DNA from: Fimbriimonadaceae bacterium
Lineage (GTDB): Bacteria > Armatimonadota > Fimbriimonadia > Fimbriimonadales > Fimbriimonadaceae
Assembly: GCA_019454105.1 (NCBI GenBank)
Contig: CP075364.1
Span: 124,001-188,000 of the forward strand
Direction of reading: 5' to 3'
Length of the DNA: 64,000 nucleotides
This document shows positions 27,709-33,419 of this stretch, one piece after another; position 1 is the first letter of the stretch, and every line of letters begins with the position of its first letter. Under the pieces are notes generated by a model. That model saw nothing but the letters and a program-made list of their open reading frames with translations. It was not told where the DNA came from and did no database searches. The position numbers were made by a program, and so were the translations under genes.

Positions 27709-27764
27709 CTCCAATAAGAGTGACGCTGAGGGTGGGCAGAAGGCACCGAGGGTTTGGGCCCGAG

Positions 27765-27783: not shown

Positions 27784-30081
27784 ATGATGTCAGGGCCCCA
27801 CTCTTCGGGCGCATGGCCTTTAGACGACGACATCTGGGCGTTCCGGATGCTTGGACGGTTCGAAGGCACAAGACGAGGGGCTTCAATGCCCCGACTCCGT
27901 TCGCGGTCGGCGGCTTCCGTGCTCGCGTTCCTGGCTCTGCACCGTGGCCGAGAGTTCTCGCGCGCAGAACTCGGCGAGACGATTTGGCCGGACGGCGAAC
28001 CCGAGAAGCAAATGCAAAACCTTCGTCGTACTCTCTCAGACATCCGTGACGCGCTCGAATCGGATGGTCTTGAGGGAGTCGTTCTCGAAGCTGGAAGGAA
28101 CTACGCCCGTCTTTCGCCAGACCACTTCACGACCGACTGCGAGCGCCTGACGGCGCTTGCCGAGAGCGCCGAGCGAACCGGGGACGACCAGGCTCAAGCC
28201 CAGATTTGGGGCGAGATCATGGGACTTTACCAAGGGCCGTTGCTTTCACCGCTCTACGATTCATGGATCACACCGTTCCGTCTTGAGTTCGAGGAGAGCT
28301 ATGTCGGAGCCGTACGGGGGCTTATCGGCTTACTGATCTCCGCCGGGCAGAGCCGGGACGCGGTGAAAATCGGACGAAGGGCGGTCACCGTCGCGCCCCT
28401 CCGTGAGGACACTCATGTGGCCTTGATCCGGGCCTATGCCAGTGCTGGACTCGGAAGCGAGGCGGTGCGGCAGTTCGAGGAGCTCGAGCGGATACTGGAC
28501 GACAATTGGGGCGAATCGCCGTCGCATGAGGCAGTCGAAGCGCTCGAGTCTGGGCCTGTCGCGGTTCCGAGGCGCCGGCCAGGGCCAACCACGCCAACGA
28601 CGAAGCCGAGCAACGACCTGGTGTCGCCGTCCGACATCGTTTTGCTTTTCGACAGGACTAACGAGTTGGCCTCCAAGAGAGTTTCCGAGCTTCGCGATGC
28701 GCTAGGCGAGGCCGGACTGAGCGCCTTTTTCGACAGGCACACGAGCCCTGATCTGACCTGGGGCAAGACCATCGAGAGCAAAGTCCGGAAGGCCAAAGTG
28801 GTCGCCGCGCTGGTCTCTGAAGGATCGGATCAGAACGAGATGATGACGGCCGAGCTCGAGATCGCCGACTCGGAAAGCCTTGACGACGGGACGCCGAGGA
28901 TCTTCTCGCTCAAACTTGACGGCGCTTGGCCGCTTGCCGGGGTGATGGGGGGTGTTCTCAACTCCCGACCGTCGTTCGATTGGCCGTCCGAGGCCGATGT
29001 CGAGACCGCAGTGGGATACATCAAGGACGCTCACTGGCGCGAGAAGGCTCCGTTGGTTGCGATCGAGCCGGACCATCCCGGTGGCGCGGTGCCTCTCGAT
29101 TCGAAGTTCTACATCGACCGACCGACCGATCACCTAGTCAAGCGGGCGATAGAGACCTGCGACAGCATCGTCTTGGTCAAAGCACCGAGGCAGACCGGCA
29201 AGACTTCGCTGCTCGCCCGTGCGGCCCAGTTCGCGAGAGCGGGGGAGCGCCGTCTGGTGCTCTCGGACTTTCAGACGATGAGCGCGTCCCAGCTGCACTC
29301 GGAGGAGACGCTTTACAAGGGGCTGGCGTCCGGATTGGCGACCCAGCTCGGGTCTCAAGTCGACCTCAAGGAACTTTGGAACGATTGGCTGGGAGCCAAC
29401 TCGAACTTGGACGCGGCCGTGGTCGCGGTGCTGGAAGAGACTGAGGGGCCAGTGGTCTGGTGCTTTGACGAAGTCGACCGCTTGTTCGGGCATCCCTACA
29501 GCACCGACTTCTTTGGCCTGGTGCGGAGCTGGCACAACCGGCGTGCGTTGGAGCCGGGCAGCGTTTGGCAGCGGTTGACTGTGGTGATCACGTTCGCCAC
29601 GGAGGCCCACTTGTTCATCAGGGACCTCAACCAGTCGCCTTTCAATGTCGGCACACGGCTTGAGCTGGCCGACTTTGACGAGGCGCAGATGCTCGACCTT
29701 GTTCGGCGGTACGGCTCGCCCTTGACGAGCGACGAGGACGTCGCACGATTGCGAGAACTGGTGGGCGGGCAGCCGTTCTTGGTTCGACGGGCCTTAGACC
29801 GGATCGCCACAGACCGTGCCAGTCTTGAGGACATCGAGGCCGACGCGCTCAGGGATGACGGTCCGTTCGGCGACCATCTCTCTCGACTCTGGTTCTCGCT
29901 CTCGCGTGACGAGTCCACCATGACTGAAGTCGGCAACTTGTTGGAGGGAAAGCCGTTCCAGAGGCCAGAGACCTTCTATCGACTTCGGGCGGGCGGCCTG
30001 ATCGTCGGTTCACCAGATGAACCACGGTTTCGGTGCGGAGCCTATGGCCGTTACTTGGCCTATCGGCGAGGGCCGAACTGA
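27784..30081 (+). CDS. SARP/BTAD-TIR-AAA fusion protein (STAND-like)
   Basis: A protein of about 765 residues with four parts. First is an OmpR-type winged helix as in SARP regulators (FRMLGRFEG to LRRTLSDIRDAL). Second is a bacterial transcriptional activator domain of TPR type (about residues 120-255). Third is a TIR-like domain (about 280-400: DIVLLFDRTNELASKRV, GLSAFFDRHT, a Glu in MMTAELEIA). Last is an AAA/STAND-like ATPase (about 435 to the end) of the AAA_35 type, with GGAVPLDSKFYIDRP, Walker A PRQTGKTS and Walker B VVWCFDEVD. The DNA-binding part suggests transcription control; TIR plus ATPase suggests regulated signalling or NADase activity. A TTG at 27754 could add 10 residues. It converges on a paralogous AAA gene, overlapping by 22 bases. 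Confidence 0.82.
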   Translation: MMSGPHSSGAWPLDDDIWAFRMLGRFEGTRRGASMPRLRSRSAASVLAFLALHRGREFSRAELGETIWPDGEPEKQMQNLRRTLSDIRDALESDGLEGVVLEAGRNYARLSPDHFTTDCERLTALAESAERTGDDQAQAQIWGEIMGLYQGPLLSPLYDSWITPFRLEFEESYVGAVRGLIGLLISAGQSRDAVKIGRRAVTVAPLREDTHVALIRAYASAGLGSEAVRQFEELERILDDNWGESPSHEAVEALESGPVAVPRRRPGPTTPTTKPSNDLVSPSDIVLLFDRTNELASKRVSELRDALGEAGLSAFFDRHTSPDLTWGKTIESKVRKAKVVAALVSEGSDQNEMMTAELEIADSESLDDGTPRIFSLKLDGAWPLAGVMGGVLNSRPSFDWPSEADVETAVGYIKDAHWREKAPLVAIEPDHPGGAVPLDSKFYIDRPTDHLVKRAIETCDSIVLVKAPRQTGKTSLLARAAQFARAGERRLVLSDFQTMSASQLHSEETLYKGLASGLATQLGSQVDLKELWNDWLGANSNLDAAVVAVLEETEGPVVWCFDEVDRLFGHPYSTDFFGLVRSWHNRRALEPGSVWQRLTVVITFATEAHLFIRDLNQSPFNVGTRLELADFDEAQMLDLVRRYGSPLTSDEDVARLRELVGGQPFLVRRALDRIATDRASLEDIEADALRDDGPFGDHLSRLWFSLSRDESTMTEVGNLLEGKPFQRPETFYRLRAGGLIVGSPDEPRFRCGAYGRYLAYRRGPN

Positions 30082-33000
30082 GGGGGTGGACCATGGAAGA
30101 TTTGGACCGTGCCGTCGCTCGAGACGGTGGCGACCTTTGATCGGTCGCCGCACATCCTGGCCGCGAAAACGGTAAGGCTGTGGCCCAGGAACTCCATGAC
30201 CGGTTGCCCGGTCTCGGTGTCCGAAAGCCGAGCGGTCTTGTCGGCTGAGGCCGTCAAGATTCGGTTCCCGTCCGGCGTGAACTCGGCGGTGGGCACCCAG
30301 CTCTGGTGACGGATTCGTCCGATCTCCTGGCCCTTGGCCGCATCCCAGATGCGGGCGCTACCATCGAAAGACCAAGTCAGGATGCGGGACTCGTCCCCGT
30401 TCCAGATCGCGTTGAAGAGACGCGCACGGTGTCCCGAGAGGGTCAGAATCGATGACGCTAGGTCGGAAGACAGCACCCGGGCGGTGCCGTCCATGCAAGA
30501 CACGAGGATCCGCCCGCCGTCCATGGAGAAACGGGCTGACCGCAGCGGAGAAGGCACGGAGGTTCTGGCGACGACACGGGCCTCAGGGATGTCCCAAATC
30601 CTTAAAGTCTTCCCGCTGCTCGACACCAGCTTCAAGTTGTCGCTAGAAAAGCCGAGAGCCTGGATTCTCGTTTCATGACCTTGGATCGGAATCTCCTTCA
30701 TCGAGGGTCGAACCTGGTAAAGCTTGAGGTCGCCGCTGATTGAGCCCGCTGCGAGGAACTCCCCCGACGGAGAGAACTTGGCAGTCACGACCTTCCCTTC
30801 GAGCTTCTTGAGTGAAAAAGGATTCCCAGTCCGGTCGATGATGGACAGCGTCCCGTCCTCACCTCCTAAAGCCACCAATCTGCCTCGGGGATCGACCGCA
30901 ATGGGGAACGGTGGGTCGCCCTGGCCAAGGTGCACTTTCGCCTTGATCTTCCCAGTCAGCGTGTCGAGCAGAATCCCTTTGCCGTCGGTGCCGACCGTGA
31001 CCAAGTGCCGACTGTCGTGCAGCCACGCACAGTCGAAGACTTCGCGATCATGCAGCTTGTACTTCTCGACAGCAGGATGTTGTTGAACCGGCCAGACGCG
31101 GACCGTCCTGTCGCGGCTGCCCGTGAAAATCTTCTGGCCATCAAGCGAAATATTCGCAAAGGTCAACCAGTCTCGGCTACCGACATACTGCTGGAGCATG
31201 CGGCCCGTTTCTGCTTCCCAGATCGCCGCTGTGCCGTCGGCGCTCGCGGTCAGGAGACGCCGGCTGTCCGGGAGCCAGCGGACATACTGGACGCTCGAAC
31301 CGTGGCCGATAAGGTTTCGAAGGTGACGCCCGGTCTCAGAATCGATGATCGAGACGAACGGGCTTTGCTGACCCATCGCGAGGAGTCTGCCGTCTCGGGA
31401 AAGAGAGACCGCGTCTGGATTCCGAAAGTCTTCATGTTCGACCGCATAGATTGTTTCAAGACCAGGTAGCCGGCACGCCCTCAAGGTACCTGGGCCTCTT
31501 TGGTCGGATTCGACGACGTAGATTCTTGAGCCTTCGTGGTCGACAACCGCGCGGTGAACTCTGGCTGGCCATGGCTTAGAAAACATTCTTTCGGGTCGGT
31601 TCGGTCCCAGCTGATAGGCGCAGAGCCTCTCGCCATTGGAACTCGCATTGACCTCCGTGCCGGCCAAGAAACTCGATTCTTGGAGACGACCATTGACGAT
31701 GATGGGGACTGGCCATGAGGTGGTCGAAAGCTTGCCGTCTTTGATCGCGGCAATCTGGAGTTCGATGGCTTCGGTGTCTTCCGGCCGGCAAAAGCCAAAG
31801 TATCGAGCCGAATCTAAGAAGACGGGCCCACGATCGACGAGGTTCTGGAGCAACAATGGGGTCACAGACCCTTCAAAGATCCGGTACAGCCCCCCCGAGG
31901 TTGCGACCATCAAGGCTCCGTCGGGGCCAATCTCTCCATCCTCCACCGGATGGTCGAAAGTGTGGAGGATCTGTCCGCGCCCAAGATAGTTTGACCAATA
32001 ATCCCATTCCCATCCTTTGTCTGGAGATCCCTTCTGCCGGTCGATCATCTCTCCAATGCCAATCCAGTTCTTGCGCTCGACTTCCAATCGGAGAGACAAC
32101 ATATCGCGGAAGTAGTTGGTGCGTTCTGCGGATCGGCGCATCGCCTGGGCTTCGTTGGTGGCTGCCTGAAGACGCTGCACCATTCGGGCGTTCTGTACAG
32201 CGAAGTAAGCAACGACGCCGAGGACAACGGCCGCCACGCTGGCCGTTCGCAAGGCGGCCTGGCGTGCCGCTGCCTGCTGTCGCCTCTGTTCGGCCTTGGG
32301 GAGGTTCGCCCGGATCCAATTGTGATCGAAGACTTGACGATAGATTCGGTTTCTTGGGACGAGTCTGCCGTCAAGCGAGCCACAAGCCCCGGAGAGCCGC
32401 AGGGTCGCTAGCACGGGGTTGGAGTCATCGGCCATGACGGGCTTGCGCTTGAGGATATTCGCATAGGTGGAGAGCACACGGGTCAACCGCTCTTCAGGAC
32501 CGAGGAGGGGGTCTCGCGTCTCGAGCATGCGCCTCTCGGTGTCGGCCAAGTTGGCGTCTTCATCAAGGGCTGTCTTTCCGAAGTAGACATGCCTGACGAG
32601 GGAATCCACGTCGCTCGCATTGACGATCGACAGATCGTCCATGGCTTTCTGACAAAGGAACTGGGTGAGGTAAGGGTGGCCATGGGTCCAGTGAAAGACC
32701 CTTCGGACGAGTTGAAGGCCCGACTTTCTGCCCTCAAGGAGAGCAGCACCGTACCGCTCCACATCGCTCAAAGTGAGGTCAGTGAGTTCGATCGCCGTAC
32801 CGATGTTAAACGGGGTGACTTCCACGTTCTTGACCAATTGATCGGGCGTCGCCACTCCGACGAGACAAAACGATAGGCGTCCGAGGCGCGGGTCCTGCGA
32901 CCTCGCATTGAAGAGTCCGCGGATCCCGGAAAAGAACTCGTCCGTGGAGAACGGAAGCGACCGCACAAAGTCGATTTCATCGATAAAGACCGTCACGGGC

Positions 33001-33419
33001 CCACTTACGAGTTCAAGAACGACGTTCTGAACGGCACTCACCCACCTGGACAGCGGCCCCACCATTTGGTTGTTTTTCCAATAGTCGAAGAGCTGTTTTT
33101 GGCAACCGAGGTCTTGGCCCAAGGTATTCAGCAAGCCGGCGTACCACTGCTCGGCCGAGAGGTTGGAACCTAATCTCTGCAGGTCGATGCGGGCGATTCG
33201 ATGGTTCAGCTGGGCCAGCTTGACGGCTGTTCGGGCGACGAGGGAGGACTTACCCTTTTGGCGCGAGTCAAGGACGTAAACATACTCGCCGCGGAGAAGC
33301 GCGGTTAGGATGGCTCGGTCGGCTGGCCGCTCGACATAGCTTGGCGAGTCGGGTGGGAGCGTTCCTCCCGCCTGGAAGAACGGTTTTCGGTCGAAAGAGG
33401 TGGACTCGGTCCGTACCAA
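30060..33419 (-). CDS. AAA_35-type ATPase with TM helix and WD40 repeats
   Basis: The 1119-residue protein opens with an AAA/STAND-like ATPase (PPDSPSYVERPADRAI, Walker A DSRQKGKSS at 52-59, Walker B VTVFIDEID near 147). A winged-helix-like region follows, then one TM helix (about 392-409), a helical linker and a WD40 propeller region from about residue 670 to the end (GHGSSVQYVRWLPDSRRLLTAS, GSRDRTVRVW, SFDGSARIWD). This layout is typical of ligand-sensing STAND proteins, with the propeller as sensor. The start is TTG 33419, with no better codon in frame. The gene looks somewhat less GC-rich by eye than its neighbours. Confidence 0.85.
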   Translation of the reverse strand: MVRTESTSFDRKPFFQAGGTLPPDSPSYVERPADRAILTALLRGEYVYVLDSRQKGKSSLVARTAVKLAQLNHRIARIDLQRLGSNLSAEQWYAGLLNTLGQDLGCQKQLFDYWKNNQMVGPLSRWVSAVQNVVLELVSGPVTVFIDEIDFVRSLPFSTDEFFSGIRGLFNARSQDPRLGRLSFCLVGVATPDQLVKNVEVTPFNIGTAIELTDLTLSDVERYGAALLEGRKSGLQLVRRVFHWTHGHPYLTQFLCQKAMDDLSIVNASDVDSLVRHVYFGKTALDEDANLADTERRMLETRDPLLGPEERLTRVLSTYANILKRKPVMADDSNPVLATLRLSGACGSLDGRLVPRNRIYRQVFDHNWIRANLPKAEQRRQQAAARQAALRTASVAAVVLGVVAYFAVQNARMVQRLQAATNEAQAMRRSAERTNYFRDMLSLRLEVERKNWIGIGEMIDRQKGSPDKGWEWDYWSNYLGRGQILHTFDHPVEDGEIGPDGALMVATSGGLYRIFEGSVTPLLLQNLVDRGPVFLDSARYFGFCRPEDTEAIELQIAAIKDGKLSTTSWPVPIIVNGRLQESSFLAGTEVNASSNGERLCAYQLGPNRPERMFSKPWPARVHRAVVDHEGSRIYVVESDQRGPGTLRACRLPGLETIYAVEHEDFRNPDAVSLSRDGRLLAMGQQSPFVSIIDSETGRHLRNLIGHGSSVQYVRWLPDSRRLLTASADGTAAIWEAETGRMLQQYVGSRDWLTFANISLDGQKIFTGSRDRTVRVWPVQQHPAVEKYKLHDREVFDCAWLHDSRHLVTVGTDGKGILLDTLTGKIKAKVHLGQGDPPFPIAVDPRGRLVALGGEDGTLSIIDRTGNPFSLKKLEGKVVTAKFSPSGEFLAAGSISGDLKLYQVRPSMKEIPIQGHETRIQALGFSSDNLKLVSSSGKTLRIWDIPEARVVARTSVPSPLRSARFSMDGGRILVSCMDGTARVLSSDLASSILTLSGHRARLFNAIWNGDESRILTWSFDGSARIWDAAKGQEIGRIRHQSWVPTAEFTPDGNRILTASADKTARLSDTETGQPVMEFLGHSLTVFAARMCGDRSKVATVSSDGTVQIFHGPPPQFGPRR

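What the first reader, a model, noticed from the sequence alone, without database searches (positions are those of the whole stretch)
27784..33419. SARP/BTAD-TIR-AAA protein converging on an AAA-TM-WD40 protein
Two neighbouring genes carry the same AAA_35-like ATPase module in different settings. One has a DNA-binding winged helix, a BTAD TPR domain and a TIR domain in front. The other is membrane-anchored with a WD40 propeller behind. Their 3' ends overlap by 22 bases. TIR and WD40 with STAND-type ATPases are typical of bacterial signalling and anti-phage sensors, but a TIR domain between a SARP-type activator and the ATPase is unusual. The pair could be a sensor (WD40) and a transcriptional or NADase output (BTAD-TIR), or two unrelated paralogues from a local duplication.
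Basis: partly seen in the sequence, partly recalled or inferred. Interest (0 to 1): 0.65.

Follow-up and report, generated by a model that had tools for sequence, protein, structure and literature searches.

The report
Paired membrane-sensor and TIR-regulator ATPases
Two neighbouring genes encode a membrane protein that looks like a sensor and a DNA-binding protein that looks like its output, both built on the same switch-type ATPase; relatives of the pair recur, with the output module swapped, in at least nine bacterial phyla, so this is probably a two-protein signalling or defence system that seems not to have been described.

Summary
Both proteins are as described. The + gene is winged helix-BTAD-TIR-AAA_35; the - gene is AAA_35-TM-WD40; their 3' ends overlap by 22 bases. 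They are not chance neighbours. AAA_35 proteins split cleanly into an effector type (E) and a TM/sensor type (S). In the host's family 29 of 85 genomes carry AAA_35; 28 have both types, and the exception holds only broken fragments. The pair lies in unrelated gene neighbourhoods. E and S trees agree (r = 0.92). Convergent orientation arises essentially once. Relatives in at least nine phyla share one plan, usually codirectional: [kinase, CHAT, protease, cyclase or SARP]-TIR-AAA_35 next to AAA_35-TM-[WD40, TPR, YARHG]. The window's SARP-TIR protein is one version; most convergent relatives lack the TIR and keep the SARP part. Models match CED-4/TIR-NLR and Apaf-1 (ATPase, WD40) and AfsR/EmbR (DNA-binding part). 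Most likely a membrane sensor gates ATP-driven assembly of a cytoplasmic STAND transcription factor that keeps a possibly active TIR. Pairing is well supported; the signal, the E-S contact and TIR activity are inferred. The TIR fold rests on sequence profiles, because that part of the structure model failed for lack of aligned sequences.

The parts
27784..30081 (+). E gene: winged helix-BTAD-TIR-AAA_35 protein, 765 aa
27910..28077 (+). winged-helix DNA-binding domain (Trans_reg_C, residues 43-98)
   Evidence: model matches AfsR/EmbR, Z 18-19
28138..28533 (+). BTAD domain (residues 119-250)
   Evidence: E 6.5e-19
28633..29001 (+). TIR domain (about residues 284-406); the putative catalytic Glu, in AELEIA, is kept
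   Evidence: structure model uninformative here
29077..30057 (+). AAA_35 STAND-like ATPase with C-terminal winged helix (residues 432-758); Walker A APRQTGKTS, Walker B region WCFDEVDRLF
30060..33419 (-). S gene: AAA_35-TM-WD40 protein, 1119 aa, TTG start
32658..33365 (-). AAA_35 ATPase of the S protein (Pfam match residues 19-254); SRQKGKSS and FIDEIDFV motifs
32196..32252 (-). predicted transmembrane segment (residues 390-408); Lys/Arg excess on its N-terminal side
30063..31977 (-). WD40 propeller region (strands from about residue 482 to 1109)
30060..30081 (.). 22-base overlap of the convergent 3' ends

Best explanation
A two-protein sensor-executor system built on two STAND-like ATPases of the AAA_35 family. 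The S protein sits in the inner membrane by one TM helix, ATPase inside and WD40 propellers outside. When the propellers bind their ligand, the S ATPase changes state and, by direct ATPase-ATPase contact, triggers ATP-dependent assembly of the E protein. In this locus the assembled E protein acts first as a transcription activator through its SARP-type winged helix-BTAD part; its TIR either adds an NADase output or serves as a self-association surface. Shown: the domains, the conserved pairing, the co-divergence, and the swapping of the N-terminal output module. Inferred: the topology, the contact between E and S, oligomerisation, the ligand, the target genes and TIR activity.
For: Pairing: 28 of the 29 family genomes that have AAA_35 have both types, including two where E and S are far apart (G031) or partly on different contigs (G112). 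89 of 123 E genes lie beside an S gene. E and S tree distances correlate at r = 0.92 over 84 pairs and 0.96 over 23 convergent pairs, 0 of 5000 permutations as high; in 8 of 9 genomes with two pairs the true partners fit best. Unrelated flanks mean the two genes move as a unit. Topology: 83 of 94 S proteins have a TM-like segment just after AAA_35, with 5.1 Lys/Arg before and 3.6 after on average; E proteins rarely have one (6 of 127). Transcriptional output: convergent relatives without the TIR (linker 8-29 aa against 149-166 aa) keep the SARP part; in the other convergent branch, where a cyclase-like domain replaces the SARP part, a cNMP-binding protein (CRP-like where tested) lies next to all five pairs. 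Folds: E ATPase like archaeal STAND-type ATPases, CED-4 and TIR-NLRs (Z 16-22), E N-terminus like AfsR/EmbR (Z 18-19), S like full-length Apaf-1.
Against: No experiment and no modelled E-S interface exist. The positive-inside signal is moderate: 9 of 83 S proteins point the other way, and 11 of 94 have no clear TM segment. Co-divergence partly follows shared ancestry of genomes; the within-genome test is small. The window TIR keeps the putative catalytic Glu, but the nearest relative (L046) has lost it, so its function is uncertain. No consistent SARP-like direct repeats were found upstream of the pairs. The S P-loop lacks the usual first Gly, so its ATPase activity is unsure. Several E genes, mostly from Verrucomicrobiota, have no S nearby.
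Confidence: 0.5

Rival explanations
1. An anti-phage or abortive-infection system. The WD40 protein senses infection or envelope damage, E oligomerises, and the TIR depletes NAD+; the SARP part is an accessory or an autoregulator.
For: Patchy distribution (29 of 85 genomes) and unrelated flanks; a phage-type integrase beside two relatives; relatives carry modules typical of conflict systems: CHAT, trypsin, kinase, TIR, EAD7 (compare PMC7159879); putative catalytic Glu kept in the window and L064.
Against: In the convergent branch most members lack a TIR, and one of the three hybrids has lost the Glu. PADLOC gives only weak or partial matches to the window pair. No defence genes were recognised in the flanks.
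Confidence: 0.25
2. S is a keeper, not a sensor: it holds E inactive at the membrane by forming mixed ATPase complexes, as an antitoxin would.
For: Obligate pairing and co-divergence fit an inhibitor as well as a sensor; S has a degenerate first P-loop position.
Against: The swapped C-terminal domains of S (WD40, TPR, YARHG) look like ligand-binding parts, which a simple inhibitor would not need to vary.
Confidence: 0.12
3. Two unrelated AAA_35 paralogues from a local duplication, with no joint function.
For: Both belong to the same Pfam family.
Against: Only two AAA_35 in the genome and they are adjacent; E and S are distinct subfamilies across phyla; 28 of 29 genomes have both; trees agree.
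Confidence: 0.03
4. WD40 faces the cytoplasm and S is a membrane-tethered scaffold that responds to an internal signal.
For: WD40 domains are cytoplasmic in known STAND proteins such as Apaf-1 (general knowledge); 11 of 94 S proteins have no clear TM segment.
Against: Lys/Arg excess before the TM in 62 of 83 S proteins; Cys is rarer after the TM (0.70 against 1.28 per 100 aa).
Confidence: 0.1

Closest known systems
SARP regulators of the AfsR type (SARP-STAND-TPR) and EmbR
   Same: Winged helix plus BTAD in front of a regulatory part; structural match Z 18-19 to AfsR and EmbR; NCBIfam AfsR model matches residues 15-250
   Different: Here a TIR and an AAA_35 ATPase follow, with no TPR tail, and a membrane partner is encoded next door
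Apaf-1 / CED-4 and plant TIR-NLRs
   Same: TIR-STAND order in E, STAND-WD40 order in S; folds match. A sensor and an executor on separate chains recalls sensor-helper NLR pairs of plants
   Different: S is predicted to span the membrane; E carries a DNA-binding SARP part; sequence identity is low, so this is likeness of design, not shown descent
STAND and CHAT/TIR/trypsin conflict systems of multicellular prokaryotes (Kaur et al. 2020, PMC7159879)
   Same: Similar repertoire of output modules (CHAT, trypsin, TIR, kinase, an effector-associated domain) on an NTPase
   Different: A dedicated pair of two AAA_35 proteins; AAA_35, SARP and BTAD do not occur in that paper's main text
Pycsar and Thoeris
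   Same: Relatives join a cyclase-like domain with a TIR; TIRs of relatives score weakly against ThsB/ThcB4 models
   Different: Window protein has no cyclase; no ThsA-type partner; PADLOC gives only weak or partial matches

Membership tests
SARP family (E protein) | OmpR-type winged helix followed by BTAD | tested here: met
   Trans_reg_C at its cut-off, BTAD E 6.5e-19, AfsR/EmbR Z 18-19 over residues 10-261
SARP family (E protein) | binds direct-repeat promoter sites and activates transcription | tested here: inconclusive
   no consistent repeat spacing upstream of 17 E and 17 S genes; binding itself not testable here
TIR domain | sequence match to TIR profiles | tested here: met
   above Pfam cut-off; hhalign probability 99.1; the family profile finds solved TIRs, E 1.6e-7
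TIR domain | TIR fold | tested here: inconclusive
   pLDDT mostly under 50 because the alignment had at most 2 sequences over most of that stretch
TIR NADase | catalytic Glu | tested here: met
   Glu of AELEIA in register with the conserved Glu; L046 has Ala there. Its catalytic role is by analogy with SARM1
TIR NADase | NAD+ cleavage | not testable with these tools
   needs enzyme assay
STAND NTPase | P-loop ATPase with helical and winged-helix domains | tested here: met
   winged helix after the ATPase in both models; top matches include archaeal STAND-type ATPases and CED-4
STAND NTPase | signal-driven oligomerisation | not testable with these tools
   no complex modelling available
Pycsar | cyclase component | tested here: not met
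   no cyclase domain in either window protein
Thoeris | ThsA partner next to TIR protein | tested here: not met
   partner is AAA_35-TM-WD40; no Thoeris model matches
VMAP ternary systems | MoxR ATPase plus vWA protein | tested here: not met
   neither domain in the pair

The most novel reading that the evidence does not exclude
A widespread bacterial sensor-executor pair of STAND ATPases in which a membrane-spanning STAND protein passes an outside signal to a cytoplasmic TIR-STAND protein with an exchangeable output (transcription factor, kinase, protease or cyclase): a bacterial counterpart of paired NLRs that works across the membrane, caught in this lineage while it changed from a TIR to a transcriptional output.
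Probability: 0.4. Interest if true: 0.85.

Novelty: new variant of a known kind. Interest (0 to 1): 0.62.

Why it matters
Bacterial STAND sensors described so far are mostly single proteins that carry sensor and effector together. Here the two roles appear to be split over two related ATPases, one in the membrane, with the output module swapped freely. If true, it offers a tractable model for how STAND proteins signal to each other and across a membrane, links NLR-type switches to SARP transcription control, and gives a test to a large set of AAA_35 proteins on which the open literature searched here says almost nothing.

Tried and rejected
Local duplication: rejected. TIR decay in the cyclase branch: the 124-aa linker of L083 looked like a worn TIR, but profile comparison gave 0.3% probability; not claimed. 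SARP binding repeats upstream: no consistent signal; a GAGGGT repeat 20 bases apart lies upstream of the window E gene but is unsupported elsewhere. Mobile-element ends around the window pair: no tRNA near it and no convincing flanking repeats. Empty site: flank genes in the nearest relatives lie apart, so no clean empty site could be shown. Viral contigs: no relative found. PADLOC on the window pair: only weak or partial matches. Papers naming AAA_35: only a passing mention in cyanobacterial sigma factors; most subscription papers and preprints were not searched.

Full report
The window carries a 765-residue protein at 27784-30081 (+) and a 1119-residue protein at 30060-33419 (-) whose 3' ends overlap by 22 bases. 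Pfam reads the first as winged helix, BTAD, TIR_2 and AAA_35, and the second as AAA_35 followed by WD40 repeats; a hydrophobic segment begins at residue 390 of the second. The genome is a single 2.74 Mb contig and has no other AAA_35 protein.

The pair is conserved. In 85 genomes of the same family, 29 carry AAA_35. After fetching the loci, 28 of the 29 have both an effector-type (E) and a sensor-type (S) protein. The exception, G117, holds only broken fragments. G040, which seemed to lack S, has the WD40 end of an S gene next to its E gene at the end of the contig. The script was given 29 of 29; the figure to use is 28 of 29, which does not change the conclusion. In G031, and for one E and one S gene of G112, the two genes are apart, yet both are present.

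E and S are two subfamilies. Profiles built from each kind separate 241 AAA_35 ORFs with none within 30 bits of the border. That count holds some contigs twice, because two collections were searched; the pair table was deduplicated. Of 123 distinct E genes, 89 lie beside an S gene; some of the rest are at contig ends, others, mainly from Verrucomicrobiota, have room and no S. Named relatives come from Armatimonadota, Acidobacteriota, Verrucomicrobiota, Planctomycetota, Chloroflexota, Cyanobacteria, KSB1, Aminicenantes, a Thioploca and a Desulfonema.

The architecture is a frame with swapped parts. In E the AAA_35 is usually preceded by a TIR and, before that, by a variable module. Besides SARP, 29 further N-terminal parts hold a protein kinase (16), CHAT (4), trypsin (2), and single cases of an alpha/beta hydrolase, a second TIR and EAD7. 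In many Armatimonadota the module resembles a class III cyclase (weak Pfam and NCBIfam matches; the GDG metal-binding motif is visible in nearly all and the first Asp motif in about half). In S the part after the TM is WD40 in 14 of 34 scanned proteins, elsewhere TPR or other; one has YARHG. The window's SARP-TIR order is therefore one filling of a common frame. A distant Chloroflexi protein (L180) has the same order.

Evolution within the host family. On the S tree the convergent pairs form one group (support 93) and orientation changes once in the tree count; one further convergent pair (L049) lies just outside it. Convergent pairs with SARP but no TIR form a supported subgroup (95), and the window and two other SARP-TIR pairs (L046, L064) fall outside it. 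This suggests, but with an unrooted tree does not prove, that the TIR was lost. Of 24 convergent pairs, 20 overlap at their 3' ends by 4-71 bases and four do not, so adjacency is kept, the exact overlap is not. Linkers between BTAD and AAA_35 are 8-29 residues without a TIR and 149-166 with one.

Co-divergence. Tree distances of E and S correlate at 0.92 over 84 pairs, 0.96 over 23 convergent pairs and 0.71 over the 14 SARP-only convergent pairs, with no permutation of 5000 as high. Part of this is shared genome history. A stricter test uses genomes with several pairs: among nine with two pairs scored, true partners fit best in eight (p = 0.02, where the ninth, JAIBAN, was tied to three decimals); the genomes with three or four pairs had the true assignment at rank 2 of 6, 3 of 24 and 5 of 24. 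Flanking genes are mostly unrelated between loci except in near relatives, so the two genes move together. Integrase genes lie beside the pairs in G060 and G057.

Mechanism. The E model matches archaeal STAND-type ATPases, CED-4 and plant TIR-NLRs over its ATPase (Z 16-22) and AfsR/EmbR over its N-terminus (Z 18-19). The S model's best match is full-length Apaf-1 (the global TM-score is low because the domains are placed differently). S proteins mostly have a TM-like segment after the ATPase with more Lys/Arg before it than after, which predicts the ATPase inside and the propellers outside. From this I infer a membrane sensor that gates assembly of a cytoplasmic executor. For the output in this branch, transcription is favoured: the SARP part is kept where the TIR is absent, and where a cyclase-like domain replaces SARP, a cNMP-binding protein stands next to all five pairs (Pfam-tested in one of the five, the others by homology). 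Those five loci come from two related lineages, so they are not five independent cases, and the p-value is not corrected for that.

The TIR. It passes Pfam's cut-off and aligns with its relatives by profile, whose own profile finds solved TIRs including SARM1 and a bacterial NADase. The putative catalytic Glu is present in the window and L064, and replaced by Ala in L046. Structure prediction failed over this stretch because the alignment held almost no TIR sequences in register. TIR activity is therefore open.

Place among known systems. It works like an NLR-type switch divided over two proteins. It is not Pycsar, Thoeris or a VMAP ternary system, whose defining partners are absent. E meets the sequence definition of a SARP regulator. 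In the library searched, AAA_35 turned up in one relevant paper, in passing, and related searches found no description of the pair. That library lacks preprints and most subscription journals, so 'undescribed' is provisional. I file it as a new variant of STAND-based signalling or conflict systems.

Noticed in passing
L083, L084, L085, L088, L089 (upstream of S): A cNMP-binding protein (CRP-like, with a Crp-type helix-turn-helix in L085) lies divergently next to the S gene of all five convergent cyclase-AAA_35 pairs; short cNMP-binding proteins also lie beside L053 and L058. None was found beside SARP pairs.
   Followed up: partly
L052:3673-7257: A 1194-aa protein with SARP, AAA_35 and then a second STAND-like NTPase (AAA_16/NACHT/NB-ARC matches) and no S gene nearby.
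   Followed up: no
L049:3507-5582 and L065:4670-6685: S-type proteins with no WD40; L049 carries a YARHG domain after the TM and L065 looks alike by eye.
   Followed up: partly
L054 and L056 (G112): An E and an S gene lie on different contigs; the S copy keeps the same neighbouring genes as the intact pair in L068, so the E gene seems to have moved away.
   Followed up: partly
L041 (G031) and L040 (G008): In G031 the E gene adjoins proS, and in G008 the S gene adjoins the GNAT-like gene; both are also neighbours of the pair in the window. Chance or a remnant of shared location.
   Followed up: partly
L064:7021-9235: The SARP-TIR E gene of G013 is split into two overlapping frames; pseudogene or sequencing error not decided.
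   Followed up: no
L067:8914-10083 and L045:1895-3070: Phage-type integrase genes close to the pair in two genomes.
   Followed up: partly
window 27728-27753: GAGGGT occurs twice, 20 bases apart, just upstream of the E gene and of a TATTGT sequence; possible SARP site, not supported in relatives.
   Followed up: partly
L115, L120, L128 and others (Acidobacteriota): Many relatives outside the host phylum carry an N-terminal protein kinase in front of the TIR and AAA_35 (16 of 29 N-terminal parts scanned; L115 seen directly).
   Followed up: partly
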